A stretch of 64,000 nt of DNA, from assembly GCF_029948125.1 (NCBI RefSeq), contig NZ_JASAMB010000020.1, forward strand, positions 62,001-126,000. The letters are read 5' to 3'. The first letter of the stretch is position 1. Every line of letters begins with the position of its first letter. A program made the translations under genes and the position numbers. The notes beneath the pieces are model-generated. The model searched no databases. It was not told the origin of the DNA and worked only from the letters and a program-made list of their open reading frames with translations. Of this stretch, positions 8,430-54,915 are shown piece by piece. This DNA is from Catellatospora sp. KI3 (GTDB lineage Bacteria; Actinomycetota; Actinomycetes; Mycobacteriales; Micromonosporaceae).

Positions 8430-8474
8430 TCGATTCGCTCCGCCGGAGCCGATGGCGTAGGCTTACGGAGCCGA

Positions 8475-8548
8475 CGCGGGGTGGAGCAGCTCGGTAGCTC
8501 GCTGGGCTCATAACCCAGAGGTCGCAGGTTCAAATCCTGTCCCCGCTA
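8475..8548 (+). tRNA. Initiator tRNA-Met (CAT)
   Basis: A full 74-nt cloverleaf. Acceptor CGCGGGG pairs with CCCCGCT, leaving a C1/T72 mismatch that marks an initiator. The anticodon arm is CTGGG-CTCATAA-CCCAG with three consecutive G-C pairs next to the loop, the second initiator hallmark. The T arm GCAGG-TTCAAAT-CCTGT closes with a wobble pair. CCA is not encoded. A strong hairpin follows 8 nt later. Confidence 0.95.
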
Positions 8549-8555
8549 CTGAAAG

Positions 8556-8589
8556 AGAAGCCTGGTTCCGCACGCGGAGCCGGGCTTCT
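8556..8589 (+). terminator. tRNA transcription terminator
   Basis: Arms 8556-8571 and 8574-8589 pair over 16 positions (two G-U) with almost no loop, immediately after the initiator tRNA. It also faces the 3' end of the converging ATPase gene, so it could stop both transcripts. Confidence 0.85.
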
Positions 8590-8651
8590 GACTATTGGGG
8601 AGCATCATCGTCGCGGGAAGCATCGTCAGCCATCGGTCTGACGGCCTGGCT

Positions 8652-10814
8652 TCAAACGGCTGCCTTGCCAGAACGTACGTTCTGATGCTTGCGCATGGCC
8701 TCAAAGAACAGTCGACCGTTGACGTGCAAGTTGATCTGCTCTTGGCTCGGCAGCGACGATCGGTTCAAGGCTCGTTCCAGTCCGCGCGTGCTCATCTGGA
8801 TGATCGCGTCCATAGAGCGGACCCCGTGTTCGAAGCGGGCCACCGTCAAGAAGGCTGCGAGTACTCCGTCGTCGACGTCGAAACTGTCTTTCGTCTTGGC
8901 GACATGGTATTTCTCGAAGAGAGCATGGAGGGTCAGCGCCCGTCGCAGCTTGATCGCGGGCTCCAATGAACCGTCGGCGGAGTCGACGCTAGCGATGTCG
9001 ATGTACCCTCGGATGCGGCTGATGAAGTCGACCGCCTTGTATTCGGGGGCGGCTTTGTGTGCCTTCTTCTTGAAATCGGCGAAGGTCTTGGACGTCCCGC
9101 CGATGAAGACGAACACCGCTGGGCCCAGGCGATGCACTGTTTCTCCCTGATTGAAGTTTCCGTCCTGTATGGGCGCGAGGAAGTAGCGGAGCCAGCCGAG
9201 GCGCTTGGTCCCCATCGGAGAGTCGAACTCATCCCACAGCGCCACGGGAACAACTCCGGATAGTGCTATATCGCGGATCTGATGGAGAGCTCCGATGAGA
9301 TCGTCGGGTGATGACATCTGTGACAGATTGAACGTGTGCGATGCGATTCGCTTTTCTTCGCTCCATCTCCTGAAGAGTTCCTCCACTGCGAAGCCCTTCC
9401 CGGAGCCAGGGCATCCGAACACGGCGATGGCCAGGGGTTTGGCTCCGTGATGGAGATCGTTGTCAAGGTGGTTCTGGACGAGGTTGTCGATCGCGTGCAG
9501 ACCTTCGATCTCCTCGCGATCCACCGTGATGAGCTTGCCGAACTTGGCCAGCGGGACATCGGGCAGCCGAGCGCTGACGGCCCTCTTGCCGCTGCGGGCG
9601 ATCTGCATGAGGACAGAGTCATCGATGGCTGACATCTCGTATAGCGGCGGGCACTTCACGCGATTGTGGTCGGGGGTTGGGCGACTGGGATCAGGGATTT
9701 TGATGTCATCAAAGAGATTGTGGCTCCCATGTCTAAAGATGCTCGGGAAGAAGTTGAACGTTTTCTCGCCCTCGTTGACGTCGAACCCGGTGTCATACAA
9801 CCTCTGCATGGCTACGAGACCGCTTTTGACGGCGTCGGCGAAACGAGGGGCGTCGAAATTGCGGGACAATTCTCGGACAAGGCAGGCGCAGAGGGCTCCT
9901 CCGTACCCGAACATCATCCCCTTGTCGTGCTGAGTGCGCCATTCGCCTTCCATGAGGCTCGACCTGTGGATCAATTGCCACTGTGTGAGTCTGTCCTGGA
10001 GCAGGAGCGCGCCGGAAGGTCCGAAGGAAACGACCAGTTTGGGGCACAGGGTCAGATCCTTGAGTTCATGACGAAGTTCGACTTCTGTGATCGTGTCGTA
10101 CGCTGAACGTTCCCAGGAGAGGTTCCTGCTGATTTCAGCCTTCGCGTCCCTGAGCTTGGCAGCGCTGGTCAGGATGATGAGGCGCTCTTTGAGCCAGGCG
10201 TGCTCGCTCTTGCCGTTGCTCGCCAGTATCGTTTTGATCTCTTCCCAAAGTCCACCTTCGACTATGTTGAAACTCATCTTTAGAAGAACCCACGGCGGGT
10301 CGTCGGCATACTCGCTGAGAAGCAGTACATCTCTCCAATTCGCCGGATTTCTTCTGAAGCCGAGGTCGGCGTCGTCGATCACGATGATTCTTGGCGGTTG
10401 GGTCGGTCGGTTGGTGGGCGTGGCGTCTTTGCGAACCGAGGCGGGGTCGTCGACCGCGCGGCGAAAGCCGACATGTCCAGCTAGCCGGAAGACTGTTTTC
10501 TTATCGGATGAATAAGATCTCATTGTTGAGATCGAGTGGTTGAAGCCGCTGCCGTATGCGGTCAAGTCGGTGGCCAGTTCCGGTTCTTGCGCGCAATGCA
10601 CCTGGTCTCGACCTGCCTTACCGCCGTTGATGGCAGCGTTGATCATCGATTTAAGCTGAAAGATTCCACCCTTGTGCCAATAGAGGTCGACGTTGGTGTG
10701 GGGGCGGTCGTCGGTGTTCTGTAGATTGCAATCGTTCTTCGGGACGATTGCCCAATCGATGGTTTGATCGCCAGTGACCAGCACTGGGTGCGTCGAAACA
10801 GATAGAGCGCTCAT
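8652..10814 (-). CDS. Orphan PfkB-like / AAA ATPase fusion, function unknown
   Basis: 720 residues from ATG 10814 (AGAGG ribosome site upstream). The first third resembles a degenerate ribokinase/PfkB fold: opening strand HPVLVTGDQTIDWAIV, GGIFQL near residue 50, IIVIDDADLGFRRNP, then SFGPSGALLLQDR and a Gly-rich GMMFGYGGALCACLV where kinases have their GAGD loop; the canonical catalytic Asp is not obvious. From about residue 430 comes an AAA-type NTPase: AIAVFGCPGSGKGFAVEELF (Walker A) and PVALWDEFDSP (Walker B), then VFVFIGGTSKTF as sensor 1 and a helical lid. Base composition is visibly lower in GC than its neighbours and it has no operon partners. Proximity to a tRNA suggests acquisition by transfer. 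It is not a transposase or known restriction gene. A role in stress or phage conflict is speculation. Confidence 0.6.
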   Translation of the reverse strand: MSALSVSTHPVLVTGDQTIDWAIVPKNDCNLQNTDDRPHTNVDLYWHKGGIFQLKSMINAAINGGKAGRDQVHCAQEPELATDLTAYGSGFNHSISTMRSYSSDKKTVFRLAGHVGFRRAVDDPASVRKDATPTNRPTQPPRIIVIDDADLGFRRNPANWRDVLLLSEYADDPPWVLLKMSFNIVEGGLWEEIKTILASNGKSEHAWLKERLIILTSAAKLRDAKAEISRNLSWERSAYDTITEVELRHELKDLTLCPKLVVSFGPSGALLLQDRLTQWQLIHRSSLMEGEWRTQHDKGMMFGYGGALCACLVRELSRNFDAPRFADAVKSGLVAMQRLYDTGFDVNEGEKTFNFFPSIFRHGSHNLFDDIKIPDPSRPTPDHNRVKCPPLYEMSAIDDSVLMQIARSGKRAVSARLPDVPLAKFGKLITVDREEIEGLHAIDNLVQNHLDNDLHHGAKPLAIAVFGCPGSGKGFAVEELFRRWSEEKRIASHTFNLSQMSSPDDLIGALHQIRDIALSGVVPVALWDEFDSPMGTKRLGWLRYFLAPIQDGNFNQGETVHRLGPAVFVFIGGTSKTFADFKKKAHKAAPEYKAVDFISRIRGYIDIASVDSADGSLEPAIKLRRALTLHALFEKYHVAKTKDSFDVDDGVLAAFLTVARFEHGVRSMDAIIQMSTRGLERALNRSSLPSQEQINLHVNGRLFFEAMRKHQNVRSGKAAV

Positions 10815-10966
10815 GGGATGCCTCTTGGTTGCTCAATTCGCTGTTGCTGCGGCCAAGCCCATGTGTGATAGACGGTGCTCACGGCTTACGTCGTACGCTC
10901 GATGCGACCACGTCGAGGAGTGACGCCTCTGTTCCATTGGACACCCTGGTCCGAGGTTTGAAAAGG

Positions 10967-10981
10967 GATCACGGCGTGATC
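10967..10981. promoter_or_regulatory. Short perfect inverted repeat upstream of the ATPase gene
   Basis: GATCAC-GGC-GTGATC lies about 150 bp upstream of the ATPase start codon, in the 269-bp gap that also carries the cellulase terminator. It has operator geometry but no known binder. No -35/-10 pair could be assigned with confidence. Confidence 0.3.
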
Positions 10982-11048
10982 TGTTCCGTGGGTTGATGCG
11001 GGTCGCTGGGTCCTGCAGCGACTCGACCCCCGCGGGTCGATGCCACTG

Positions 11049-11076
11049 CCGGGAGCCGACCCGGGTCGGCTCCCGG
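11049..11076 (-). terminator. Perfect 28-bp palindrome downstream of the cellulase gene
   Basis: Arms 11049-11062 (CCGGGAGCCGACCC) and 11063-11076 are perfectly complementary with no spacer, 8 bp after the cellulase stop. It should fold as a 12-bp stem in RNA and terminate cellulase transcription. Confidence 0.8.
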
Positions 11077-11083
11077 TCTCAGG

Positions 11084-12241
11084 TCAGCTCCAGGAGATGG
11101 CGAAGCTGTTGTCGGTGAAGGCGGCCGAGCCGTTCGTGCCGCTGATCTCGAAGCCGAACTGGGCCTCGCCGACGGTCACGTCACCCCACCAGTTCTGGGT
11201 GCGCAGCCAGTTCAGGATGGCGCGGATGTCGACCGTGCCCGAGTTCGTGTTGCTGGTGCGCAGGAACGAGAACACCGCGTTGGCCCCGTTGTTGCCCCGG
11301 TAGACGTTCCAGGTGTGCCCGCCGAGGCTGAGGTTGCGGAACGCCGGCACGGCACCGTTCGAGTCGTACTGGTCGGCGATCGGGCCGACGGCGCCGTTGT
11401 AGTTCATCCACAGCATGATCTCGTAGGCCCAGTTGTTGGCCCAGATGTCGTACGTGGTGGCGTAGTTGCCGCTGCCGGGCACGCTGACGTTGAACGAGCT
11501 GGTCATGCTGCCCAGCGAGCTGACGGTCCGGTTGACCGTGCCCTTGACCGTGTGCGGGTACGACTTGACGCCCGACGTCGTCGGGTGGTTGGCGATGACG
11601 CCCCAGTTCGTGGGCGTGCGCGCCCAGATGGTCTGGCTGCCCGCGCCGGAGCCCCAGATGTTGTTGTAGACGGTGTACCCGCTGTTGACCCAGTTGTCCC
11701 ACTGCCCGGAGGCCACCCAGACGGCGTCGGACGGTACGCCGGGGGTGCCGCTGCTGCGCGATGGGCTGGGCGAGATCGAGCGCGACGGCGACGGTCCGGC
11801 GGTGCGGGTAGGGCTGGGCGAGCCGCTCACGCCGCCGGTGCAGGTGACGCCGTTGAGGCGGAAGCTCGTGGGGGCCGGGTTGCTGCTGGTGAACGACCCG
11901 TTGAAGCCGAAGTTGACGGTGCCGTTGGTCGCCACCGAGCCGTTGTAGCCGACGTTGACGGCGGTGACCTGCGTCCCGCTCTGGGTGATGGTGGCGTTCC
12001 AGTGCTGGCCGACGGTCTGGCCGCCGGAGTAGGACCAGACCAGGTTCCAGCCGCTGAGGGGGTCGCCGAGGTTCTTGACGGTGACGTCGGCGCCGAAGCC
12101 GCCGGGCCACTGGTTGGTGACGTTGTAGGTGACGGTGCAGCCGGCCGCCGCGTACGAGGGCAGTCCGGTGACGACCGCGGTCCCCAGGGCGGCCATCGTC
12201 GCCGCCGCTACGGCTGCGATGGCTGAGGTCCGTTTCCGCAT
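11084..12241 (-). CDS. Secreted endoglucanase: CBM2 + GH12
   Basis: 385 residues. A Sec signal peptide ends near AYA/AAG (about residue 33). Residues 34-135 form a family 2 cellulose-binding module (CTVTYNVTNQWPGGFGADV, SGWNLVWSY, VGYNGSVATNGTVNFGF, closing Cys). A Ser/Pro/Thr-rich linker runs to about 168. The rest is a GH12 catalytic domain: nucleophile Glu in WAYEIMLWMNY (near residue 270) and acid/base Glu in QFGFEISG (near 363). GH12 enzymes cut beta-1,4-glucans (cellulose, some xyloglucan) with retention. The promoter region carries an AT-rich inverted repeat about 75-100 bp upstream. The gene is divergent from a GH3 gene, but that protein looks cytosolic and acts on a different polymer. 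Confidence 0.93.
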   Translation of the reverse strand: MRKRTSAIAAVAAATMAALGTAVVTGLPSYAAAGCTVTYNVTNQWPGGFGADVTVKNLGDPLSGWNLVWSYSGGQTVGQHWNATITQSGTQVTAVNVGYNGSVATNGTVNFGFNGSFTSSNPAPTSFRLNGVTCTGGVSGSPSPTRTAGPSPSRSISPSPSRSSGTPGVPSDAVWVASGQWDNWVNSGYTVYNNIWGSGAGSQTIWARTPTNWGVIANHPTTSGVKSYPHTVKGTVNRTVSSLGSMTSSFNVSVPGSGNYATTYDIWANNWAYEIMLWMNYNGAVGPIADQYDSNGAVPAFRNLSLGGHTWNVYRGNNGANAVFSFLRTSNTNSGTVDIRAILNWLRTQNWWGDVTVGEAQFGFEISGTNGSAAFTDNSFAISWS

Positions 12242-12314
12242 GACTCCTCCAGTCGGTCGCCAGGGGGGCGGTCGCGGCCGTGGAGGGGCTGCTGGGCGTC
12301 CGGTGGCGACGGAT

Positions 12315-12341
12315 TTAAGTTTATCGTATTTACAAACTTAA
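12315..12341. promoter_or_regulatory. AT-rich inverted repeat upstream of the cellulase gene
   Basis: TTAAGTTT (12315-12322) and AAACTTAA (12334-12341) are perfect inverted arms with an 11-bp spacer, a striking AT island in GC-rich DNA. It is a likely promoter/operator for the cellulase on the minus strand. The chitinase gene carries a comparable TTTACTT-TT-AAGTAAA. Confidence 0.55.
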
Positions 12342-12531
12342 GAGCGGCTGTCGCGCGGGTCAACGCCGTGCGGACGATCGGCACGACCGGGTCGCCCGGA
12401 CCGGGCTGTCGAATCAGGATGCCGACCGGTACGCTCCCGCCCATCCGTGCGCACAGATGACTCCGACGCGCCTCCAGTGCGCTGGATCGCGCACAGCGCC
12501 TGCGCGCAGTGAGCGAAAGGGAAGATCCACG

Positions 12532-14007
12532 ATGACGCAGCTCGACTCCGACCTGGCCCTGCTGGCCGACACCGTGCTGCAGCCCGGCTTCGTCGGCACC
12601 TCGGCGCCGGACTGGGTGCGCCGCAGACTCGGCCGGGGCCTGGGCGGGGTCGCGCTGTACTCGCGCAATGTCGCCGACCGCGAGCAGACCGCCGAGCTGA
12701 CCGCGCAGCTGCGTGCCGAGAACCCGGACGTGGTGATCGCGATCGACGAGGAGGCCGGTGACGTCACCCGGCTGGACGCCCGCACCGGCAGCGACCGACC
12801 CGGGAACCTGGCGCTGGGCGCCGTGGACGATCCGGACCTCACCGAGGCCGTGGCCCGCGACATCGGCGCCGACCTGGCCGCCGTGGGCATCACCCTGAAC
12901 TACGCGCCCACCGTCGACGTCAACTCCCGGCCCGAGAACGTCGTCATCGGGGTGCGGTCCTTCGGCGCCGATCCGGCGCTGGTCGCCCGGCACAGCGCGG
13001 CCTGGGTGCGCGGGCTGCAGGCGGCCGGGGTGGCCGCGTGCGCCAAGCACTTCCCGGGGCACGGCGACACCGTGGAGGACTCGCACTTCGACGCGGCCCG
13101 GGTGCACGCCTCGCGCGAGGAGCTGGCCGCCACCGCGCTGCCGCCGTTCACCGCCGCGATCGCCGCCGGGGTGCGCGCGATCATGACCGGACACCTGCTG
13201 GTCACCGCGTACGACGAGGAGCTGCCGGCCACGTTGAGTCCGGTGCTGCTGACGGGGCTGCTGCGCGAGCGGCTGGGCTTCCAGGGGCTGATCGTGACCG
13301 ACGGCATCGAGATGGCGGCCGTGGCCCGGCAGTGGGGCGTCGGCGGGGCCGCGGTGCGGGCGCTGGCGGCCGGTGCCGACGCGATCTGCGTGGGCGGCGA
13401 GTACAAGAACGAGGGCATCGTCGGGCTGCTGCGCAACTCGATCGTCACCGCGGTGCGCGAGGGTGCGCTGGCGCAGGAGCGGCTGGCCGACGCGGCGGCG
13501 CGGGTGCGCGCACTGGCCCGGTGGGGGCGCGAGGCCGCGGCGGATCTCGGGCGTACGCCGGAGGTCGGGCTCGCCGCGGCCCGGCGGGCGGTGCGGGTGA
13601 CCGGTTCGGGGCTGCCGCTGGCGGGTCCGGCGCACGTGGTCGAGCTGGACACCCCGACCGGGATCGCCGTCGACCAGAGCATGCCCTGGGGCGTGGCCGG
13701 GCCGCTGGCCGCGCTGCTGGCCGGTACCACCACCGGACGGGTCGGCCCCGAGCCCGAGCCGGACTGGCTGGACGCGGCGCTCGCGGCGGCGGACGGCCGG
13801 GCCCTGGTCGTCGTGGGGCGCGACGCCGCCCGGCACCCCTGGGCGCGGCAGGCGCGGGCGCGGCTGCTCGCGGCCCGGCCGGACGCGGTCGTGGTCGAGC
13901 TCGGCATGCCGGAGCCCGAGCCGGTGGGGTCGGTCTATGTGGTCACCCACGGCGGAACCCGTGCCTGCGGACGGGCCGCCGCCGAGGTCCTGACCGGACG
14001 GCACTGA
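12532..14007 (+). CDS. GH3 beta-N-acetylhexosaminidase (NagZ-like)
   Basis: 491 residues from ATG 12532 (GAAAGGGAAG ribosome site); no signal peptide, so cytosolic. It has the N-acetylhexosaminidase-specific GH3 signature KHFPGHGDTVEDSHFD (near residues 173-188), whose Asp-His pair supplies the acid/base in NagZ enzymes. The nucleophile Asp lies in GLIVTDGIEMAAV (near residue 257). After about residue 350 there is an additional C-terminal domain of the type seen in longer Gram-positive and actinobacterial members. The likely role is removal of GlcNAc from cell-wall muropeptides or chito-oligosaccharides during recycling. The 290-bp divergent region with the cellulase gene must hold both promoters. 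Confidence 0.9.
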   Translation: MTQLDSDLALLADTVLQPGFVGTSAPDWVRRRLGRGLGGVALYSRNVADREQTAELTAQLRAENPDVVIAIDEEAGDVTRLDARTGSDRPGNLALGAVDDPDLTEAVARDIGADLAAVGITLNYAPTVDVNSRPENVVIGVRSFGADPALVARHSAAWVRGLQAAGVAACAKHFPGHGDTVEDSHFDAARVHASREELAATALPPFTAAIAAGVRAIMTGHLLVTAYDEELPATLSPVLLTGLLRERLGFQGLIVTDGIEMAAVARQWGVGGAAVRALAAGADAICVGGEYKNEGIVGLLRNSIVTAVREGALAQERLADAAARVRALARWGREAAADLGRTPEVGLAAARRAVRVTGSGLPLAGPAHVVELDTPTGIAVDQSMPWGVAGPLAALLAGTTTGRVGPEPEPDWLDAALAAADGRALVVVGRDAARHPWARQARARLLAARPDAVVVELGMPEPEPVGSVYVVTHGGTRACGRAAAEVLTGRH

Positions 14008-14203
14008 TCGGAAAATCTTCTGAATCGGATGCGGCGCGACCGGAGCGGTCACTTGGCTGGCCGCGCCGGTCAAAACGTCGAGACATGTCTATTCACGTGC
14101 GGAAACGGTCTATGTCTTTCAGTTAAGAGTCTTGCCAGTTTAAGAAATCCACCTTACGTTTGCCCCCGACTGACTCGCATTCTCCAGTCGCGGGGGGACA
14201 CTC

Positions 14204-17200
14204 ATGGCCGAGTCCGAAGCAGGCATTCTCACGGCGGCGCAGCAGCGGCTGTGGTTCCTGGACCGGTTGGACCCAGGCGATGCGGCGTACCACATCTCGA
14301 CCACCAGCCGCCTGCGCGGGCAGCTGGACTACGAGCTGCTGACGCGCGCCTACGACGACGCCACCCGGCGGCACGAGAGCCTGCGCACCCGCTTCGGCGA
14401 CCACGACGGCGTGCCGTACCAGCAGGTCCAGGACCCGCGCCCGACCCCGGTCGAGTACGCCGACCTGTCGGCCGCCCCGGACCCGCAGGCGGCCGCCCGC
14501 GCCCGGGTCGAGGAGCTGATCGGCCGCCCCTTCGACCTCGCCCAGGGGCACCTGATCCGGGTCGGACTGCTGCGGCTGTCCGCGGACGAGCACGTCCTGT
14601 GCACCGTCGTGCACCACATCGTCGGCGACGGCTGGTCGATGAACCTGCTCTACCGGCAGATCACCGAGTCCTACCGGGGCCTCGAACCGGCCGCCCCGGC
14701 CGTGCGCTACCTCGACCACGCCGCCGCCCGCGCCGGTGCCGCCGGCACCGGCCTGGACTTCTGGGCCGGCGTCCTGGCCGACCCGCCGACGCTGGACCTG
14801 CCGCTGGACCGGCCCCGCCCGCCCGTGCGCACGTCGGCGGGCGGCGTGGTGTTGCGCGAGTTCCCCGGCGACACCCTGCGCGCCGTGCAGGCCGCCACCC
14901 GGCAGCTGCGGTGCACGCCGTACATGCTGCTGGTGACGCTGTACGAGCTGGCCCTGGCGCAGCTGTCCGGCCAGGACGACCTGACCGTCGGCACCCCGGT
15001 CGCCGGGCGCGACGACACCGCGCTGGAGGCGGTGTTCGGCTACTTCAGCGGGATGCTGGTGCTGCGCGCCGACCTCTCCGGCGACGTCACCTTCCGCGAC
15101 CTCGTGCTGCGGACCCGCAAGTCGTTCATGGAGGCGTTCGCGCACCAGGACATCCCGTTCGAGGACCTGACCGCGCGGCTGGACCTGCCCCGCGACCTGA
15201 GCCGCAACGCACTGTTCCAGGCCACGTTCACGCTGCACACCACCATGAACGTCTCCGCCACCGCGACCGACGGGTTCGGCGGGCTGGCCGCCGAGGCGTT
15301 CGACTCCGGCACCCCGCACGTCAAGACCGACGTGGCGATGGACGTGCAGCTCGGCGCCGACGCGATGGACGTGGCGCTGACCTACAACCGCGACCTGTTC
15401 GACCCGGCCACCGCGCACGCGCTGGCCGACCGGTTCACCGCGCTGCTGCACACGGTGCTGGCCGACCCGGACGCCCGCGTCCGCGAGCTGCCGCTGGTCG
15501 ACGACGACACCCGCGCCGAACTGCTGCGCCTGGGCACCGGACCCGACCTGGCACCCGACGTGCCCCTGCTGGACCGGATCGAGTCGACCGTCGCGGCCAC
15601 CCCGGACGCGATCGCGCTGCGCAGCGGGGACGAGCAGGTCAGCTACGCGCGGCTGTGGACCGGCGCGGGCGAGCTGGCCGAGTCGCTGCGCGCGGCCGGG
15701 GTCGCCCCGGGCGCGCTCGTCGGCGTGAGCGTGCCGCGCGGCGCCGACCTGATCGTGTCGCTGCTGGCGGTATGGCGGGTCGGCTGCGGCTACGTGCCCC
15801 TCGATCCGCAGCTGCCCGCCGCCCGCCGCGACGCGATGACCGCCCAGGCCGCGGTGGCCGCGGTGCTGACCGCCGACGGCGTCCTGCCCGGCGCGGCCGA
15901 GCCGACGACCGCACCCGACGCCGCCTATGTGCTGTTCACCTCGGGTTCGACCGGGACGCCGAAGGCCGTTCTGGTCGGCCGGCGAGCCCTCGACGACCGT
16001 ACGACGTGGATGGCCGCCGAGTACGCGCTGACCGCCGCCGACCGGGTGGTCCAGTTCGCGGGCGTCGGGTTCGACACCCACGCCGAGGAGATCTGGCCGA
16101 CCCTGGCCACCGGCGGCACGCTCGTGCTGCTGCCCGACGGCCCGCAGTCGCTGCCCGAACTGCTCGCCGCCGACCCGGCGGTCACGGTCCTGGACCTGCC
16201 CACGGCGTACTGGCAGGCGCTGCTGGACGTGGTGCCCGCGTGGCCCGCCGCGCTGCGGCTGGTCATCCTCGGCGGAGAACAGGTCGACGCCGCCGCGATC
16301 GCGACGTGGCGGGACCGGCACGCCGACCGGATCCGCCTGGTCAACACCTACGGCCCGACCGAGGCCACGATCATCGCCACCGCGACCGACCTGGGCGGGG
16401 CCGACACGCGCCGCCGCCCGCCGATCGGCCGCCCGCTGGCCGGTGTCCGGGCCTACGTGCTGGACCGGTTCGGGCGCCTGGTGCCGCCCGGCGCGGCCGG
16501 GGAGCTGTGCCTGGCCGGAGCGGGGCTGGCCGAGGGCTACCTGGGCCAGGGGGAGCTGACCGCCGAGCGGTTCGCGCCCGACCCGTACGGGCCGGGGCTG
16601 ATGTACCGCACCGGGGACCGGGTCCGCTGGCGCCGGGACGAACCCGTGCTGGAGTTCCTGGGCCGGGTGGACCGGCAGCTGAAGGTGCGCGGGGTGCGGA
16701 TCGAGCCCGGCGAGGTCGAGGCGGTCCTCACCGGGCATCCGGGTGTCGGCCAGGCGGCCGTGGTGGCGGTCGGGGACACCCTGGTCGGGTACGTCACCGG
16801 CCCGGTCGGCGCCGACGAGGTGCGCGCGTCCGCCGCGCGGCGGCTGCCCGCGCTGCTGGTGCCGAGCGTGGTCGTGGTGCTGGCCGAGCTGCCGCTGACG
16901 CGCAACGGCAAGGTGGACCTGCGCGCCCTGCCGCCGGTGACCGTCGGGCAGGAGCTGCGCGCCGACTACCTCGCACCGCGTACCGACGCCGAGGTGCTGG
17001 TCGCGGGGATCTTCACCGAGCTGCTGCCGATCGAGCGGGCCGGGGCGCACGACGACTTCTTCGCCCTGGGCGGGCACTCGCTGCTGGCCACCCGGGTCAT
17101 CGCCCGGCTGCGTGCCACCGTCGAGCTGGACCTGCCCATCCGGGCGCTGTTCGACCGGCCCACCGTGGCCGGGTTCGCCGACGCCGTCGAGCAGGCGCTG

Positions 17201-17271
17201 GTCGCCGAGATCGACCGGCTCACCGAGGAAGAGGCCGCGGCGCAACTGCTCGCGGCGGGACAGGGAGCACC

Positions 17272-17275
<4 letters not shown>
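14204..17275 (+). CDS. NRPS, C-A-T module (specificity unassigned)
   Basis: 1023 residues; first gene of the NRPS operon, ATG 14204 preceded by GGGGGG. Condensation domain about 10-430 with intact VHHIVGDGWS; adenylation domain about 440-900 with LFTSGSTGTPK, an unusual A4 GVGFDTHAEEIW, NTYGPTEATI, YRTGDRVRW and the catalytic Lys in LTRNGKVDLR; carrier domain with Ser959 in LGGHSLLA. No epimerase, methyltransferase or thioesterase. Reading the ten specificity positions by eye gives about D-T-E-D-I-G-T-I-I-K. I recall codes beginning DTEDVGT for beta-lysine domains, so a basic residue is possible, but this is not verified. The stop overlaps the next start (GTGA, 4 bp), showing coupling. The 196-bp upstream gap should contain the operon promoter. 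Confidence 0.9.
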
Positions 17276-22809
<5,534 letters not shown>

Positions 22810-22846
22810 ACGCGCGCTACCGCGTCACGGGCCGGGCGGTGACCGC

Positions 22847-24375
22847 GTGAGCGCCGTCGCCGCCGCCAGGGCCGCCGCGCGTGCGGCCGGACGCGCCCCG
22901 CTGACCGTGCCGCAGCTGCTGGCGGCGCGGGCCCGGACCCAGCCGGACCATGTCGCGATCACGCAGGGTTCGACCACGCTCGACCTGGCGACCTGGCAGC
23001 GGCGCACCCAGGCGATCGCGGCCGGGCTGCGGGAGGGCGGCGTGCGGCCGGGGGACCGGGTCGGGCTGCTGTACGGCGCCCGCGACTGGATCGCCTACGC
23101 CACCGCGTACACCGGCGTCCTGGCCGCCGGTGCCGTCGCGGTGCCGCTGTCGACCCGCAGCGCCGCCGCCGAGCTCGACTACATGCTGCGCCACAGCGGC
23201 GCGGTCGCGCTGCTGCACGGCCCCGACGCGGTCCGGCCCGAGACACCGATCCAGCTGGTATGGGATCCCGCCGCCGTAACCGCCCTGCCCGACGCCGGAC
23301 CGCTGCCCGGCCCCGACCCGGCCGCGCCCGCCCAGATCCTCTACACCTCCGGCACCACCGGTCGGCCCAAGGGCGTCACCGCCGTACACGCCAACCTCAC
23401 CCACGGCTGCCGCATCGACCCGCCGCTGCGCCGCCTGGCCCACTCCCGGCAGTTCCTGCACGCGTTCCCGATCGGCACCAACGCCGGGCAGACCATGCTG
23501 CTCAACGCCCTGGACGCGCACGCCGGGATGCTGGCCACCGCCCGGTTCGCCGCCGCGCACTTCGCCCGGCTCATCGCCGAGCGCCGCGTCGGCAGCGTGT
23601 TCGTGGTGCCCGCGATGGCGATCGAGCTGCTGCACTCCGGTGCGCTGGCCGAGCACGACCTGTCCAGCGTGGTGCTGCTCGGCTCCACCGCCGCCGCGCT
23701 GCCGCCGTCGATCGCGGCGGGCCTGGCCGCGCAGCTGCCCAAGGCGACGATCGTCAACTACTACACCTCCACCGAGGCCGCGCCGACGCAGACCAGCATG
23801 GTGTTCCACCCCGACCGGCCCGCCGCGCTCGGCAAGGCCACCGGCGGCGGTGAGCTGCGCATCCTGACCGCCGACGGCACCCCGTGCCCGCCCGGCACCG
23901 TCGGCGAGGTGTGGCTGCGCGCTGCCGGGACGGCCCGGTCCTACCACGACGACCCGGACGCGACCCGGCACGTGTTCCGCGACGGCTGGACCCGGATGGG
24001 CGACGTCGGCCACCTCGACGAAGACGGCTACCTGTACCTGGCCGACCGCGAGAGCGACGTCATCAAGAGCGGCGCCGACAAGGTCTCCACCGTCGCCGTG
24101 GAAGCGGCCCTGCACGAGCACCCGGAGATCACCGACGCGGCCGTGCTCGGCCTGCCCGACCCGGTGCTCGGCAAGGTGCCCGCGGCGGTGCTGGTCGCCG
24201 CGCGGCCGCTGACCCTGGCCGAGGTACGCGCGTTCCTGGCCACCCGGCTGGCCGCCCACGAGCAGCCCAGCCGCCTCGCCCACGTCACCGAACTGCCCCG
24301 CAACGCCGGGGGCAAGGTCATCAAGCACCGGCTCCGGGCCCTGTTCACCGAGCGGCCCGACCAGGAGGGAACCTC

Positions 24376-24379
<4 letters not shown>
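22847..24379 (+). CDS. Stand-alone acyl/aryl-activating enzyme (AMP-forming)
   Basis: 510 residues from GTG 22847, 37 bp after the NRPS-MFS gene. ANL-superfamily motifs are complete: ILYTSGTTGRPKGVTA, NYYTSTEAAP, GWTRMGDVGHLDEDGYLYLADRESD and the catalytic Lys in RNAGGKVIKHRL. No carrier domain is fused and I see no FAAL-type insertion. It probably activates a carboxylic acid (fatty or aromatic) as AMP ester and hands it to CoA or to the free carrier protein encoded two genes downstream, giving the starter unit of the peptide. The substrate cannot be read. The stop overlaps the next start by 4 bp (ATGA). Confidence 0.82.
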
Positions 24380-27386
<3,007 letters not shown>

Positions 27387-27390
<4 letters not shown>

Positions 27391-27638
27391 CCGCCACGAC
27401 CCTGGAGACCGACCTCGCCGGACTGGTGGCCCAGGCCAGCGAGGGCGCGGTGACCCCGGCGCAGGCGCTGGCCGAGCCGCACTCGCTGGGCCTGCTGGGC
27501 CTGACCTCGCTGGGGTTCCTGCGGCTCATCCACGCCGTCGAGCGCCGCTACGGCGTCGCGCTCGACCTGGACGACGATGTGTCGTACCTGGACACGATCG
27601 GCAGCCTGGCCGCGCACCTGCGCGAACGGGGCGTCTGA
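27387..27638 (+). CDS. Free acyl/peptidyl carrier protein
   Basis: 83 residues from GTG 27387, overlapping the upstream stop by 4 bp. The phosphopantetheine attachment site is Ser41 in LLGLTSLGFLRLIHAVERRYG, read as the GxTSL form of the DSL motif, followed by the usual acidic helix region. It is the natural acceptor for the free acyl-activating enzyme in the same operon and so probably carries the starter unit. It ends with TGATG, sharing a base with the next start. Confidence 0.88.
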
Positions 27639-29059
27639 TGCCGACGGTGGCGGTGCGCGGGGCACCGGGCGCGGCCGCGCCGCTCACCTGGGGCCAGTAC
27701 GCCATCTGGGCCGCGATCGGGCGTACCGCCCCCAACGACCACTACTTCAACCTCACCCGCGTGCTGACCCCACCGGACAGGTGCCGCCCGCTCGATCCCG
27801 ATACGGCACTCGACCGGATCGGCACGGCGCTGAGCAGGCATCCGGCCCTGCGCACCCGGATCGTGCCCGCCGGCACCGCCCCGGGCCGGGCACCAGCCGG
27901 CACCGACCGGTCGGCGGTGCCGCCGGGGTCGGCGGTCCAGCAGGAGATCGTGGCGGAGGCCGACGTCGCCGTGCGCACCGTCGCGGCCGCCGACGAGGCC
28001 ACGGCCGGATCCGCCGCGACCGACCTGGTCGAGGAGCTGGCCGCGACCGCGTTCGACTACGGCACCGAGGCGCCGGTCCGGGTCGGGCTCGTCCTCGTCG
28101 ACGGTGCCGTCGCCCGGGTGGTGCTGGCACTGTGCCACCTGGCCACCGACGGCCACGGCGCCGACATCCTGCTCCGCGACCTGCGCCTGGCGCTGCTCGG
28201 CCGCACCGGGCCGCCGCCGGGCGACCCGGGCACGGTCGTGGCCGAGGAGACCTCGGCGGCGGGGCGGGACCGCAGCGACGGCGTAGTGGACACCTGGCGC
28301 GACGCCTACCGGGCCCTGCCGCCGAGCATGTTCCCCACGCCGCGCGCCGAACCGCAGCCGGTGCGCTGGTGGGTCGGGCGGCTGACCTCGCCCGCCCTGG
28401 GGCTGGCCGCCGCCGCGCTCGCCGCGCGGCACCGCACCAGCGTGTCGTCGGTGCTGTTGGCGGCCACCGCCGCGATGGTCAGCGCCGACGGCGCGGGCGA
28501 CCGGGCGGCCGTGCTGACCATCGTCGGCAACCGGTTCGACCCGTCCCGGCGCGACCTGGTCGCCACCCTGTCCCAGGAGGGCCTGTTCACCCTGGACACC
28601 TCCGCCGCCGACTTCGCCGACCTGCTGCGGCCCGCCTGGCGGGAGAGCCTGCGCGCCTACCGGTCCGGCTACTACGACCAGCTCGCCCTGGACGCCGCGC
28701 TGGCGCAGGTCAGCGCCGAGCGCGGCGAGCAGGTCCATCCGATGTGCTGCTTCAACGACATGCGCCTGGTCGACCTGCCGCCCGGCCCCGCGCCCACCGC
28801 CGAGCAGGTCCGCGCGGCCCGCGCCGCGACCGTGTTCACCTGGGCGGCGCCGCAGCCGCTGGTCGGCTGCCGGTTCTGCGCGCACGTGACCGCCGCCGGT
28901 CCGGCGCTGACCTACCAGGTCACCGGCGACACCCGGTACCTGCCGCCGCAGCGGCTGCGGGCGTTCGCGCTGGGGCTGGAGGAGCTGGTGGTGGCGGCCG
29001 TGGCCGGCCCGGCGCCGCTTGCGGCGCTGCCGGCGCGGCTGGGCGGGGCGGCCGCATGA
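27638..29059 (+). CDS. Stand-alone condensation/acyltransferase-like protein
   Basis: 473 residues. The N-terminus (LTWGQYAIWAAIGRTAPNDHYFN) is the opening of a condensation domain and the core motif is LCHLATDGHGAD: the second His and the DG of HHxxxDG are kept while the first His is Cys. The second lobe (TSVSSVLLAATAAMVS, LTIVGNRFDP) also fits the chloramphenicol-acetyltransferase-like fold. It could transfer the carrier-bound starter, or modify the peptide by ester or amide formation. A non-catalytic role is less likely because the catalytic His is present. It overlaps the next start by ATGA. Confidence 0.8.
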   Translation: MPTVAVRGAPGAAAPLTWGQYAIWAAIGRTAPNDHYFNLTRVLTPPDRCRPLDPDTALDRIGTALSRHPALRTRIVPAGTAPGRAPAGTDRSAVPPGSAVQQEIVAEADVAVRTVAAADEATAGSAATDLVEELAATAFDYGTEAPVRVGLVLVDGAVARVVLALCHLATDGHGADILLRDLRLALLGRTGPPPGDPGTVVAEETSAAGRDRSDGVVDTWRDAYRALPPSMFPTPRAEPQPVRWWVGRLTSPALGLAAAALAARHRTSVSSVLLAATAAMVSADGAGDRAAVLTIVGNRFDPSRRDLVATLSQEGLFTLDTSAADFADLLRPAWRESLRAYRSGYYDQLALDAALAQVSAERGEQVHPMCCFNDMRLVDLPPGPAPTAEQVRAARAATVFTWAAPQPLVGCRFCAHVTAAGPALTYQVTGDTRYLPPQRLRAFALGLEELVVAAVAGPAPLAALPARLGGAAA

Positions 29060-30933
29060 GGCTCACCGCTTACGCCCGCGCCTGCGCCGTCGACCCCGGC
29101 AAGAGCCTCGACTTCGTGGTCGCCTGCGTCGAGCCTGGTCATCCGCTCGGACACGTCACCGTCGTGGACGTGCCGACCGGGCAGGTCATGCTCGTCGACA
29201 CCGTGGACGGGCCGCACTGGTCGCTGGACGTGCCCGGGAACTGGCCCAGTTCGCTGTACCGGGCCGCGTTCCGCGGCGACGGCCGCGCCGCCTCGACGGT
29301 CGCCGACAGCCCCGAGGCGGACGTCCACTTCGTCGTACGCGGCACCGGCGACGCCGAGGTGCTGGTGTCGGTGCCGTTCCTGACCTGGCAGGCGTACAAC
29401 CGGGCGGGTGAGCCGGGGCAGGGCCTGTACTACGCGGAGGAGCCGACCCGGGCCGCGAAGGTCGGCTTCGACCGCCCCGGCGGCGGGCCGCCGCCGCAGG
29501 AATGGGAGCACGGGCTGATCCGGTGGCTGCCCGGCAGCGGGCTGCGGGTGGCGTACTGCGCCAACCTGGACCTGCACGACCAGCCCGAACTGCTGGCCCG
29601 GCACCGGGTGCTGGTCGTCAACGGCCACGACGAGTACTGGACCTGGGAGATGCGCGACCACGTCGAGGCGTACGTGCGCGGCGGCGGCAACCTGGCCGTG
29701 TTCGGCGCCAACACCTGCTGGTGGCAGATACGGCTTGAGGACGGCGGCCGGAGCATGGTGTGCCATCGCGACGCCGTCGCCGACCCGGTGGCCCGTACCG
29801 ATCCGTCGCGCACCACCGTCGAGTGGTCCAGTGCGCCGGTCGACCGGCCTGAGAACGCGCTGACCGGGGTCAGCTACCGGCGCGGGGCCGGGACGTGGGG
29901 CGAGCACATGGTGAAGATGCGCGAGGAGTCGTACCGGGTCCGGTTCGCCGAACACTGGGTGTTCGCGGGCACCGGGCTGCGCGACGGCGAACCCTTCGCC
30001 CAGGGCGCCCTCGGGTACGAGACCGACGCCGCCGACTTCACCGAGGTCGACGGCGTACCCCGGGTGACGGGCCGGGACGGCACCCCGCCCGGGTTCGTCA
30101 TCCTCGCCACCGCCGACCTGCGGCACTGGCGCCACTACGGGCAGGGCGGCCACGCCACCATGGGCGTGCACCGGCTGGGGCAGGGCGAGGTGTTCACCGC
30201 CGCGACCGTCAACTGGGGCGCCGCACTGGCCGACCCGGTCGTGGACCGGATCACCCGCAACGTGCTGGCGCGCTTCACCCGGGCGGCCGAGCCGGGCTTC
30301 GAGCCGATCGGCCCGGCGGTGCCGGGCGCGGTGCTGGCCGCGTGCGAGGGGCGCCTGTTCGCGGCCGCGGACGGCGTGCTGCGGGTACGGGAGCTGTGCG
30401 GGCAGAACCTGTCGTGGCGCACCGTGGACACCGCGCCGGAGCTGGTGGCGCTGGGCTCACCACGGGAGGCGTACCGGGGCATGCCGTTGGGTCTGCTGGG
30501 CGTGACCACCGACGGGCGCATCGTCTACCGCGATCCGGTGCCCGAACCGGCCCCGTGGCGCGACCTCGGCGGCGCCGCCGCCGGGACGACGGCGCTGGCC
30601 TGCGTGAACGCCACCTACTTCGCGGTCGCCGACGGCGGGCTGTGGTCCCGGACAGCGGCGTCGCTGGCCGACGGCACGGGAGCCTGGCAGCGGATCGACG
30701 ACGCGACCGGCGTGGTCGCGCTGGCCGGGCTGAGCGGCCTGCTGTTCGCCGCGACCGGCGCCCGGCTGCGCTGCCGGCCGCCGGTGGACGGCCCGGCGCC
30801 GTGGACCGACCTCGGCCCGGCCGCCGGGGTGACCGCGCTGGCGGGCGCGGCCGGCATGCTCGTGGCCGGGGGCGCGGACCTGCGCTGGCGGCAGGCCGCG
30901 GCCGCGCGTGATTCCCGGCCGCCGGCGCCGTAG
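29056..30933 (+). CDS. N,N-dimethylformamidase beta-subunit-like protein, last gene of the NRPS operon
   Basis: 625 residues from ATG 29056. The first ~420 residues show the conserved block of the DMFase large-subunit family: LLARHRVLVVNGHDEYWTWEM, then DHVEAYVRGGGNLAVFGANT, CWWQIR, and a C-terminal GxGEVFTAATVNWG segment. In DMFase a mononuclear iron is held by two Tyr and a Glu; the Tyr of HDEYW is a candidate ligand. About residues 430-620 form short repeated strands (GVTTDGRIVYRDP, NATYFAVADGGLWSR, GLLFAATGARLRC) that look like a small beta-propeller. No signal peptide is visible. The likely role is hydrolysis or formation of an amide on the peptide; unproven. Confidence 0.75.
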   Translation: MRLTAYARACAVDPGKSLDFVVACVEPGHPLGHVTVVDVPTGQVMLVDTVDGPHWSLDVPGNWPSSLYRAAFRGDGRAASTVADSPEADVHFVVRGTGDAEVLVSVPFLTWQAYNRAGEPGQGLYYAEEPTRAAKVGFDRPGGGPPPQEWEHGLIRWLPGSGLRVAYCANLDLHDQPELLARHRVLVVNGHDEYWTWEMRDHVEAYVRGGGNLAVFGANTCWWQIRLEDGGRSMVCHRDAVADPVARTDPSRTTVEWSSAPVDRPENALTGVSYRRGAGTWGEHMVKMREESYRVRFAEHWVFAGTGLRDGEPFAQGALGYETDAADFTEVDGVPRVTGRDGTPPGFVILATADLRHWRHYGQGGHATMGVHRLGQGEVFTAATVNWGAALADPVVDRITRNVLARFTRAAEPGFEPIGPAVPGAVLAACEGRLFAAADGVLRVRELCGQNLSWRTVDTAPELVALGSPREAYRGMPLGLLGVTTDGRIVYRDPVPEPAPWRDLGGAAAGTTALACVNATYFAVADGGLWSRTAASLADGTGAWQRIDDATGVVALAGLSGLLFAATGARLRCRPPVDGPAPWTDLGPAAGVTALAGAAGMLVAGGADLRWRQAAAARDSRPPAP

Positions 30934-35472: not shown

Positions 35473-36888
35473 TCAGCGTCCCTGGAGGGACTTGACGTTG
35501 TCGCCGAAGGTCCAGCTCTTGCTGCCGTCCCAGTTGATGGACCAGGTCATCAGGCCCTTGAGGCTGCCGCTGAAGCTGTTCCACGACTGCGACACCAGGC
35601 TCGGCGCCATGTAGCCGCCACCGGCGCCCGACTGCGCGGGCAGGCCCGGCACCTGCTTGTCGTAGGGGACCCGGATGGTGACCCCGCCGATGGTCAGACC
35701 GTTGTTGAGGCAGGTGGTCTGCGCGGTGAAGCCCTGCACGGTGCCCGCGGAGTACGAGTCGCCGGCGCAGCCGTACATGCTGCCGTTGTAGTACTGCATG
35801 TTCAGCCACCACAGGCGGCCGTTGTCGGCGTACTTCTTGATGATCGGCAGGTACGAGCCCCAGATCGAGCCGTAGGTGACGCTGCCGCCGGTGACGTACG
35901 CGGTCTCCGGCGCCATGGTCAGGCCGAAGTTGGACGGCATCTGCGCCAGCACGCCGTCGATGATGCGGATGAGGTTGGCCTGCGAGGTCGACAGGGTGCT
36001 GATGCTGCCGCTGCCGGTCAGGCCGGTCTCGATGTCGATGTCGATGCCGTCGAAGTTGTACGTCTTCAGGATCGGCACGATGGTGGCGATGAACCGGTCG
36101 GCGACCACGCTGGAGCTGAGGTCGATGCCGGCCGCGGCGCCGCCGATGGACAGCAGGATGGTCTGCCCGGCGGCCTTGGCCGCGCACATCTCGGCCGGGG
36201 TGGCCACCTTGACGCCCGCGTCCATGCCGTTCTCCCACAGCGCGGTGCCGTCGGAGCGGATCACCGGGAACGCGGCGTTGATGACGTTGTAGCCGTGCTG
36301 CGCCATGCGCGAGTCGGTGATCGGGATCCAGCCCATGCCCGGGTGCACGCCGTTGGACGCGCCGTCCCAGTTCTCCCAGTAGCCGACCAGCACCTTGCCG
36401 GCCGGGCGGGACTTGACGGCGCAGGTGGTGCCGCCGGGGGAGGTGGACGGCGACGGAGAGGGCGAAGCCGACTTCGACGGGGACGGCGAGGGGGAGGCCG
36501 AGCGCGACGGCGACGGCGAGGGCGACGCCGAGCGGGAGGGCGAGGCGGACGGCGACGGCGGAGTGGTGCCGTCGCAGGCGCCGAGGTCCTTCCACAGCGA
36601 CGGGGTGGCGGCGGGGTTCCAGCCGGCGCCGACGTACGCGGTGTGGGTCACCAGGGCCTGGTACAGCCGCCCGTTGTAGGTGACCTGGGTGCCCGCGGTG
36701 TAGGTGTTGCCCTCGGCCCAGGCCGGGGCGGTGCAGGCGGCCAGCGCGGTCACGGCGCCGGTGGGCTCGGCGGCCTGTCCGCTGGGCATGGAGACCACGG
36801 CGACCGCGAAGGTGACGGCCGTGCTGGCGGCCAGTGCGACCGCCCAGCGCGCCGCGCGACGCGGTGTCCGAAACGAAGTGTTCGACAT
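35473..36888 (-). CDS. Secreted GH18 chitinase with CBM5/12
   Basis: 471 residues from ATG 36888. A signal peptide (WAVALAASTAVTFAVAVV...GQAAE) is followed by a CBM5/12 chitin-binding module (CTAPAWAEGNTYTAGTQVTY...YQALVTHT...WNPAATPSLWKDLGAC). A repeated Ser-Pro linker (PSPSPSRSASPSPSPSKSA type) joins it to a GH18 domain with substrate strand ILLSIGG and catalytic DGIDIDIE (general acid Glu near residue 284), then MAPETAYV and WWLNMQYYNG. It belongs to the ChiC/ChiD-like actinobacterial group by appearance. It releases chito-oligosaccharides outside the cell. An AT-rich palindrome 20-35 bp upstream of the start probably contains its promoter or operator. Confidence 0.94.
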   Translation of the reverse strand: MSNTSFRTPRRAARWAVALAASTAVTFAVAVVSMPSGQAAEPTGAVTALAACTAPAWAEGNTYTAGTQVTYNGRLYQALVTHTAYVGAGWNPAATPSLWKDLGACDGTTPPSPSASPSRSASPSPSPSRSASPSPSPSKSASPSPSPSTSPGGTTCAVKSRPAGKVLVGYWENWDGASNGVHPGMGWIPITDSRMAQHGYNVINAAFPVIRSDGTALWENGMDAGVKVATPAEMCAAKAAGQTILLSIGGAAAGIDLSSSVVADRFIATIVPILKTYNFDGIDIDIETGLTGSGSISTLSTSQANLIRIIDGVLAQMPSNFGLTMAPETAYVTGGSVTYGSIWGSYLPIIKKYADNGRLWWLNMQYYNGSMYGCAGDSYSAGTVQGFTAQTTCLNNGLTIGGVTIRVPYDKQVPGLPAQSGAGGGYMAPSLVSQSWNSFSGSLKGLMTWSINWDGSKSWTFGDNVKSLQGR

Positions 36889-36907
36889 CCCGCAATTATT
36901 AGTAAGG

Positions 36908-36923
36908 TTTACTTTTAAGTAAA
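36908..36923. promoter_or_regulatory. Palindrome immediately upstream of the chitinase gene
   Basis: TTTACTT-TT-AAGTAAA is a perfect 7-bp inverted repeat, with a further AT-rich TTACTAATAATT on the start-codon side. It resembles the AT island before the cellulase gene and is a likely operator/promoter for the chitinase. Confidence 0.55.
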
Positions 36924-54897: not shown

Positions 54898-54915
54898 CAC
54901 GATTCCCTCCCCTCC

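What the first reader, a model, noticed from the sequence alone, without database searches (positions are those of the whole stretch)
14204..30933. Seven-gene NRPS operon with free starter-loading parts and an unusual tailoring enzyme
Seen: seven co-directional genes with 4-bp or 1-bp overlaps at five of six junctions. They encode C-A-T, C-A-T-TE-MFS, AMP ligase, C-A-T, free carrier, stand-alone C-like protein and a dimethylformamidase-like protein. Known: a free AMP ligase plus free carrier is a common starter-loading solution. Inference: an acyl- or aryl-capped tripeptide or tetrapeptide containing Gly, X and Ser. I do not recognise the set as a characterised pathway.
Basis: partly seen in the sequence, partly recalled or inferred. 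Interest (0 to 1): 0.8.

Follow-up and report, generated by a model that had tools for sequence, protein, structure and literature searches.

The report
Peptide-making operon with exporter-fused release enzyme
A seven-gene bacterial operon appears to build a small capped peptide (acid cap, glycine, a probably basic residue, serine) and to release it with an enzyme of the type that closes reactive four-membered rings, built in one chain with the pump that would export the product; the same release-plus-pump unit turns up in many related soil bacteria and I found no described product.

Summary
In detail: seven co-directional genes (14204-30933), five of six junctions overlapping by 4 or 1 bp, encoding C-A-T, C-A-T-TE-MFS, AMP ligase, C-A-T, free carrier, stand-alone C protein and a dimethylformamidase-type protein. 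The set is a unit in 6 of 11 Catellatospora genomes and recurs in Dactylosporangium and Embleya.

In 80 related loci the TE is Cys in all 74 whose last module reads Ser, Cys or Asp, and Ser in the 6 whose last module reads an acidic-pocket code. The TE-MFS profile matches 156 of 300 Micromonosporaceae genomes, some in the MFS part only. Multi-module relatives give the order Gly, X, Ser. The amidase keeps the DMFase residues I could map.

Best reading: acyl-Gly-X-Ser, released as a serine beta-lactone and exported by the fused MFS. Order well supported; ring chemistry and g6/g7 roles inferred. New variant of a known kind.

The parts
14008..14203 (+). intergenic stretch upstream of the operon, presumed promoter region
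   Evidence: sequence read; no sigma-70 consensus match found, so unproven
14204..17275 (+). g1: NRPS module C-A-T; A-domain code DTEDIGTII (acidic pocket, residue X, probably basic); C motif HHIVGDG; carrier LGGHSLL
17272..22809 (+). g2: terminal NRPS module C-A-T-TE-MFS; A-domain code DVWHVSLID (Ser); C motif HHIVCDG
20569..21396 (+). TE domain of g2 (bounds approximate) with Cys nucleophile (GHCGVG) and ObiF-type Asp/His positions
21451..22461 (+). MFS exporter domain of g2 (Pfam MFS_1 residues 1394-1730; TIGR00900 model positions 1-362 of 364)
22847..24379 (+). g3: stand-alone AMP-forming acid ligase, presumed to load the acyl or aryl starter
24376..27390 (+). g4: NRPS module C-A-T; A-domain code DILQLGVIW (Gly); C motif HHLIFDG
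27387..27638 (+). g5: free carrier protein, phosphopantetheine Ser in LGLTSLG
27638..29059 (+). g6: stand-alone condensation-fold protein; motif CHLATDG (catalytic second His kept, first His replaced)
29056..30933 (+). g7: DMFase-type amidohydrolase domain (residues 53-392) followed by a beta-propeller domain (about 416-613)

Best explanation
A complete, small NRPS pathway. The ligase (g3) activates an acid of unknown identity and loads it on the free carrier (g5). g4 adds Gly, g1 adds a residue X with an acidic binding pocket (probably a basic amino acid), g2 adds Ser, giving acyl-Gly-X-Ser on the g2 carrier. The ObiF-type Cys thioesterase of g2 takes over the chain as an enzyme thioester and releases it by attack of the Ser hydroxyl, giving a peptidyl alpha-amino-beta-lactone; the MFS domain in the same polypeptide sits at the membrane and exports the reactive product. 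The stand-alone C protein (g6) uses g5-bound acyl groups in trans, as SgcC5 does with its own carrier in C-1027 biosynthesis (recalled), and the DMFase-type amidase (g7) removes an amide-linked group from the product or an intermediate. Shown here: gene set, domain order, active-site residues, residue codes, module order in fused relatives, TE kinship, conservation of the fusion. Inferred: the identities of acid and X, ring closure, export of this product, and the g6 and g7 substrates.
For: Domain content and junctions. A-codes Gly, DTED-type, Ser. In multi-module proteins among the 80 loci the order is Gly then X in 26, X then Ser in 1, Gly-X-Ser in 1 (L123, one 4146-aa protein ending in TE-MFS), no reversed case; 2 further proteins paired a classed with an unclassed A domain (gene calls). 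TE profile: best PDB match ObiF1 6n8e 120 bits, ahead of a type II TE 6vap 81, SulM 57, RifR 49; Cys, Asp and His align with ObiF C1146, D1254, H1284 (numbers from PMC6668435 passages; alignment). Tree: TE-MFS TEs plus ObiF1 plus SulM form one branch, 94/100, apart from RifR, 6vap and five TEs of the own genome. Nucleophile-residue association: Cys-TE in 74 of 74 loci ending in Ser (42), Asp (21) or Cys (11); Ser-TE in 6 of 6 ending in the DTED code (the six are L074-L078 and L081). In ObiF the Cys-to-Ser mutant mainly hydrolyses (PMC6668435 passages). A+TE+MFS in one frame in 79 of 80 loci. g6: C fold, second His kept in 48 of 48 hits (some clusters counted twice). g7: residues equivalent to DMFase H519, E521, N547, E657 identical in 20 of 20 homologues, Y399 in at least 90%.
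Against: Cys-TE also occurs with Asp ends (21 of 80), which cannot give a beta-lactone, so the Cys alone does not prove ring formation (the S. clavuligerus relative too is Asp-ended with Cys-TE). The Ser-TE group may be one lineage (three of the six were in the tree and form one clade), so the association may be a single event. The 80 loci are the best 80 of 371 confirmed and not independent: several genomes give two loci. The ObiF-type triad is shared with hydrolytic type II TEs (PMC6668435 and PMC11298585 passages). GHCGVG is one residue longer than ObiF GHCAG. SulM and several own-genome TEs have long branches, which makes their place unsure. DMFase ligand Y440 could not be mapped; the g7 model is poor around the active site and its TM-scores to DMFase are only 0.28-0.35. 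g7 was seen in only 7 of 80 loci (flanks end early) and not in the G062 stretch. Amino-acid names of codes are recalled, not from a call; X is not identified (one search found no paper with any of six such codes).
Confidence: 0.45

Rival explanations
1. Same assembly line, but the TE simply hydrolyses (or transfers) the chain, giving a linear acyl-Gly-X-Ser acid; the Cys and the Asp position are inherited from a type II-like ancestor.
For: Triad geometry shared with hydrolytic type II TEs (PMC6668435 and PMC11298585 passages; RifR and 6vap among the matches); Asp-ending relatives keep the Cys-TE although they cannot make a beta-lactone.
Against: Nearest solved TE is the beta-lactone TE, and the TE-MFS TEs branch with ObiF1 and SulM rather than with RifR and 6vap; where the last module reads the DTED code the TE has Ser instead.
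Confidence: 0.3
2. The TE makes a larger ring or an oligomer: for example the side chain of X, or the Ser hydroxyl of a second chain as in enterobactin, attacks the chain on the TE, giving a lactam, lactone or cyclic oligomer.
For: X is probably basic and so could supply an amine (code); Ser ends would allow oligolactones.
Against: A tripeptide gives awkward ring sizes with the side chain of X (reasoning); Cys and Asp ends in otherwise parallel clusters do not suit one oligolactone mechanism; EntF does not appear among the 16 PDB sequences matched at E 0.001.
Confidence: 0.15
3. The product is a metal chelator and the cluster a siderophore system: bidentate acid cap, basic residue hydroxylated or acylated by g6 in trans, MFS as siderophore exporter.
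For: Free aryl carrier plus ligase is typical for aryl-capped siderophores (general knowledge); the PCP-C didomain that g6 matches best comes, as I recall, from fuscachelin synthetase.
Against: No N-hydroxylase, salicylate or DHB synthesis, ferric-siderophore binding protein or reductase among the seven genes or the neighbours scanned.
Confidence: 0.1

Closest known systems
Obafluorin synthetase ObiF/ObiD (beta-lactone NRPS)
   Same: Free carrier and adenylating enzyme for the starter; terminal C-A-T-TE module for a beta-hydroxy amino acid; Cys-Asp-His TE of the same geometry, nearest solved TE.
   Different: Here two more modules (Gly, X); Ser instead of beta-OH-p-NO2-homoPhe; TE followed by an MFS exporter instead of the MbtH-like domain; extra stand-alone C protein and amidase; no transaldolase among the genes scanned.
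SulM thioesterase (sulfazecin, monobactam)
   Same: Cys-TE of the same group, closes a four-membered ring.
   Different: Beta-lactam through a sulfamate nitrogen; the words MFS and transporter do not occur in that paper's main text; the match is weaker than ObiF1 (57 against 120 bits).
SgcC5 (free-standing condensation enzyme of C-1027)
   Same: Stand-alone C fold; SgcC5 is among the structural matches of g6 and g6 keeps the second His of HHxxxDG. The biochemical role of SgcC5 is recalled.
   Different: g6 is distant (17-18% identity), has Cys for the first His of HHxxxDG, and its acceptor is unknown.
Paracoccus dimethylformamidase and N-acetyl-(R)-beta-phenylalanine acylase (DMFA2 family)
   Same: Top sequence and structure matches of the g7 catalytic domain; equivalents of Y399, H519, E521, N547, E657 present.
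   Different: g7 has a short N-terminal part instead of the immunoglobulin-like and pentraxin domains of DMFase, a C-terminal beta-propeller, and no small-subunit gene recognised in the operon.
TE-MFS NRPS cluster on the Streptomyces clavuligerus ATCC 27064 megaplasmid (L182)
   Same: Ligase, Gly module, and Cys-TE (GHCGVG) followed by MFS.
   Different: Last residue code Asp-type; no g7 match within the 38-kb stretch; no annotation in the collection, product unknown to me.

Membership tests
Modular NRPS assembly line | C, A and T domains with intact core motifs in order, and a terminal TE | tested here: met
   Pfam domains; HHxxxDG in g1, g2, g4 and carrier serines present
ObiF-type (strained-ring) thioesterase | Cys nucleophile in the GxCxG-like motif | tested here: met
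   GHCGVG, one residue longer than ObiF; Cys in 74 of 80 relatives
ObiF-type (strained-ring) thioesterase | Catalytic Asp late in the domain, 30 residues before His | tested here: met
   D and H in 80 of 80 loci; aligned with ObiF D1254 and H1284
ObiF-type (strained-ring) thioesterase | Groups with ObiF1 and SulM rather than with type II TEs | tested here: met
   branch support 94/100 in a 32-row tree with warnings about long branches, SulM among them
ObiF-type (strained-ring) thioesterase | Last module activates a beta-hydroxy amino acid | tested here: met
   DVWHVSLID, the Ser code (code meaning recalled); but 32 of 80 relatives have Cys-TE with Asp or Cys ends
ObiF-type (strained-ring) thioesterase | Releases a beta-lactone | not testable with these tools
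   needs enzyme or metabolite
Obafluorin pathway | L-Thr transaldolase ObiH and fused MbtH-like domain | tested here: not met
   neither found in the seven genes or the neighbours scanned with Pfam
DMFA2 (dimethylformamidase-type) amidohydrolase | Fe ligands Y399, Y440, E521 | tested here: inconclusive
   Y399 and E521 equivalents Y114 and E193 present; Y440 not mapped, Y125 is an invariant candidate
DMFA2 (dimethylformamidase-type) amidohydrolase | Catalytic H519, N547, E657 | tested here: met
   H191, N219, E322 identical in 20 of 20 homologues
DMFA2 (dimethylformamidase-type) amidohydrolase | Amide hydrolysis with iron | not testable with these tools
   -
Free-standing condensation enzyme (SgcC5-like) | C-domain fold with catalytic second His of HHxxxDG, not fused to A or T | tested here: met
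   first His replaced by Cys
NRPS siderophore cluster | Chelating-group genes and ferric-siderophore uptake genes in the cluster | tested here: not met
   none among the seven genes and the neighbours scanned

The most novel reading that the evidence does not exclude
Actinomycetes carry a large, undescribed class of small peptidyl lactone (Ser), thiolactone (Cys) and Asp-ended products built on an acyl-Gly-X core, released by ObiF-type Cys thioesterases that are physically fused to a dedicated MFS exporter, so that a reactive warhead is closed and handed straight to the pump. The Catellatospora operon is the serine beta-lactone branch, with an iron amidase that finishes the molecule.
Probability: 0.3. 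Interest if true: 0.85.

Novelty: new variant of a known kind. Interest (0 to 1): 0.6.

Why it matters
If true, it would show chain release coupled to export in one polypeptide and add a genome-minable family of covalent enzyme inhibitors: the TE-MFS profile matches 156 of 300 Micromonosporaceae genomes sampled (by my hand count of its capped list of places, at least 111 of the 300 have a place that covers both TE and MFS). It also gives a natural comparison set (last residue Ser, Cys, Asp or the acidic-pocket code, with the TE nucleophile Cys or Ser) with which to test what makes a thioesterase cyclise or hydrolyse.

Tried and rejected
Siderophore reading: no chelator or uptake genes in the scanned neighbours. 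Operon extension: a GH3 gene lies directly upstream in the window, G118, G071, G100 and G129 and in L052, which is the same contig as G133 by length; in the gene families it has members only in Catellatospora stretches (listed), so I leave it out. Downstream GntR, FAD-oxidase and hydrolase genes are on the other strand and not constantly adjacent. Identity of X from the literature: no paper held any of six code strings. Known-cluster search: no paper with dimethylformamidase plus gene cluster plus nonribosomal; none with all terms for MFS-fused NRPSs or with 3 of 6 such terms; 15 partial hits whose titles did not fit; tyrobetaine idea not borne out by the listing; 10 papers listed for NRPS beta-lactones, none naming this family in its title or abstract start. 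The library lacks most subscription journals. Phylum-wide prevalence at E 1e-150 gave 1 of 396, the own genome only; the threshold was strict, so I used family searches at E 1e-60, but the thin phylum result stands as a caution about breadth. Self-resistance hints near relatives: ten neighbour proteins scanned, nothing convincing. Structure of g7: mean pLDDT 69, active-site geometry not usable. Corrections to my notebook: entry 3 says 8 of 10 g7 contexts, the right count is 7 of 10; entry 1 says 12 TM for the MFS, but the hydropathy count gave 9 peaks over the threshold, so completeness rests on the Pfam and TIGR00900 matches.
Full report
1. The observation. Seven genes on the + strand, g1 14204-17275, g2 17272-22809, g3 22847-24379, g4 24376-27390, g5 27387-27638, g6 27638-29059, g7 29056-30933, overlap by 4 bp (g1/g2, g3/g4, g4/g5, g6/g7) or 1 bp (g5/g6), with one 37-nt gap (g2/g3). 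Codon scoring supports all seven (the model was trained on six of them, so for those six this is not independent). Pfam gives C-A-T, C-A-T-TE-MFS, AMP ligase, C-A-T, carrier, a Condensation hit just under the cut-off (29.9 of 30.6 bits) and DMFA2_C.

2. Is it a unit? The window lies in an 8.2-Mb, 96-contig genome of the genus that named relatives identify as Catellatospora. A TE-MFS of about 90% identity or more is present in 6 of 11 genus genomes, the own one included, and in the five other carriers the whole set is there in the same order at 73-95% identity per part (the G133 and G071 stretches were cut at one end, the named copies L052 and L053 show those ends). G062 shows no g7 in the stretch fetched and has two g1-like modules. 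In several Streptosporangiaceae the parts are rearranged: g7, g6, g5 and an NRPS module lie on one strand, and ligase, C-T and NRPS-TE-MFS on the other (G449, G354, G604, G666, G596, G512; also L103).

3. The assembly line. Residues at the Stachelhaus positions (located by motif anchors) read DILQLGVIW in g4 (Gly), DTEDIGTII in g1, DVWHVSLID in g2 (Ser). Code meanings are recalled. The g1 pocket has Glu and Asp, which suggests a basic amino acid; no paper in the library prints any of six such codes. The comparison set is the best 80 of 371 loci confirmed with the TE-MFS profile; some genomes give two loci. Of the 80, 59 show a Gly domain, 58 an X domain, 50 both; loci end where contigs or flanks end, so misses are not absences. 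Within multi-module proteins the order is Gly-X in 26, X-Ser in 1, Gly-X-Ser in 1, never reversed; 2 more proteins paired a classed with an unclassed domain. The Gly-X-Ser protein is L123, a single 4146-aa chain ending in TE-MFS. So the dispersed genes g4, g1, g2 most likely act in that order.

4. The release domain. The TE nucleophile is Cys in 10 of 10 close relatives, GHCGVG in nine and GHCAIG in one. In the 80 loci: Cys 74, Ser 6; the Asp and His of the triad in 80 of 80. The last A domain is Ser-type in 42, Asp-type in 21, Cys-type in 11, DTED-type in 6; all 6 DTED ends have Ser-TE and all 74 others Cys-TE (the six are L074-L078 and L081). The three Ser-TEs placed in the tree form one clade inside the Cys-TEs, so this may be one event. 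The profile of 20 TEs finds ObiF1 first (E 9.7e-34, 120 bits), then a type II TE (81), SulM TE (57 and 53) and RifR (49). The alignment puts Cys, Asp and His on the ObiF triad C1146, D1254, H1284, numbers taken from passages of PMC6668435. In a 32-row tree the TE-MFS TEs, ObiF1 and SulM form one branch (94/100), without RifR, 6vap and five TEs of the own genome; long branches (SulM and several own-genome rows) are flagged. Passages of PMC6668435 say that the ObiF Cys is needed for beta-lactone formation, that the Ser mutant mostly hydrolyses, and that the triad resembles that of the type II TE RifR. Passages of PMC11298585 say that SulM and ObiF TEs, which close lactam and lactone rings, share the Cys and the late Asp and group with type II TEs. 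Hence my reading: ring closure on Ser. The Asp-ended relatives are the main difficulty.

5. The fused exporter. MFS matches cover the model (MFS_1 1-338 of 347; TIGR00900 1-362 of 364). A, TE and MFS lie in one open frame in 79 of 80 loci, so the fusion is not an artefact. At E 1e-60 the TE-MFS profile matches 156 of 300 Micromonosporaceae and 62 of 150 Streptosporangiaceae-side genomes (family of G596), up to 9 matches per genome. Some places cover only the MFS part; by hand count of the capped list, at least 111 of the 300 genomes have a place covering both parts. At E 1e-150 a phylum sample gave 1 of 396, the own genome. The own genome has a second, distant TE-MFS NRPS with GHCVG. I recall no described NRPS with this fusion, and the searches named under Tried and rejected found none.

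6. Starter and trans parts. g3 is closest to fatty-acyl and feruloyl-CoA synthetases among solved structures, which does not fix the acid. g5 has the carrier serine. g6 is a C-fold protein: profile E 1.5e-23, model pLDDT 89.9, structural matches led by HtmB2-CT, CmnI and PCP-C didomains, with SgcC5 at rank 16. The second His of HHxxxDG is kept in 48 of 48 hits (named and unnamed copies of some clusters both counted) while the first is Cys, Ser or Thr and the final Gly is often replaced. In the 80 loci a free carrier of the g5 family is seen in 33 and lies directly beside a stand-alone C gene in 28. This pairing suggests that g6 works on g5-bound groups; its acceptor is unknown. With three C domains already serving Gly, X and Ser, g6 is one C too many for a plain tripeptide: it either replaces the C of g4 or adds a second acyl group.

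7. The amidase. g7 matches DMFA2_C and is the only match to that family in the own genome. Solved relatives are DMFase and N-acetyl-(R)-beta-phenylalanine acylase by sequence and by structure, there with low TM-scores of 0.28-0.35 from a weak model. DMFase residues named in passages of PMC7686228 map as Y399-Y114, H519-H191, E521-E193, N547-N219, E657-E322; the last four are identical in 20 of 20 homologues and Y114 in at least 90%. Y440 is not mapped. The C-terminal part is a beta-propeller. In a class-wide sample 157 of 394 genomes have some relative at E 1e-10, and most listed places cover the DMF domain only. Of 10 fetched contexts of the best matches, 7 have g7 directly beside g6 and g5 in an NRPS cluster and 3 (G419, G470, G400) show none. 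So g7 is a plausible active amidase tied to the g5-g6 pair. I guess deacylation of product or intermediate, with low confidence.

8. Comparison and verdict. Works like: obafluorin logic (free carrier, ligase, beta-hydroxy amino acid, Cys-TE). Member of: modular NRPSs, yes; ObiF-type TE group, yes on the features tested, product untested; obafluorin pathway, no. Novelty: new variant of a known kind.

Noticed in passing
G000:C89, L202-L204 (about 125517-127631 of the contig): A second, distant (38%) NRPS with Cys-TE fused to MFS in the same genome, motif GHCVG, last A-code DLTKVAHVS.
   Followed up: partly
L090, L097, L099, L103 and others (24 of 80 loci): 2-oxoacid dehydrogenase E1-alpha, E1-beta and E2 genes beside or inside the TE-MFS clusters, perhaps supplying the acyl starter.
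   Followed up: partly
L075, L076, L078, L089, L100 and others: In Streptosporangiaceae the g4 counterpart next to the ligase looks like a C-T protein without an A domain, so its carrier must be loaded in trans or carry the acyl group.
   Followed up: no
G264:C50 149524-157966, G131:C66 46181-54606, G275:C7 85481-94045: Pairs of adjacent stand-alone C-like proteins (35-38% to g6) lie a few kb from another TE-MFS match in Micromonosporaceae.
   Followed up: no
window 8001-12000: Stretch of about 62% GC in a window otherwise at 69-79% GC, beside tRNA-Met (8475-8549), with a 720-aa protein (8652-10814, -) that has only a sub-threshold AAA_22 match and no PADLOC match.
   Followed up: partly
window 11084-14007 and 35473-36954: GH12, GH3 and GH18 genes around the operon; the GH3 gene sits directly upstream in the Catellatospora clusters read on that side.
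   Followed up: partly
window 53593-57357: Two proteases in a row, an alpha-lytic/trypsin type and an M4 thermolysin type; the second has a CBM5/12 domain, the first a sub-threshold match to it.
   Followed up: no
L117, L120, L125, L128, L129, L131: Micromonospora clusters with a TauD-family dioxygenase gene, an Asn-type module (DLTKVGEVG or similar) and a Ser-coded TE-MFS module, a related but distinct pathway.
   Followed up: no
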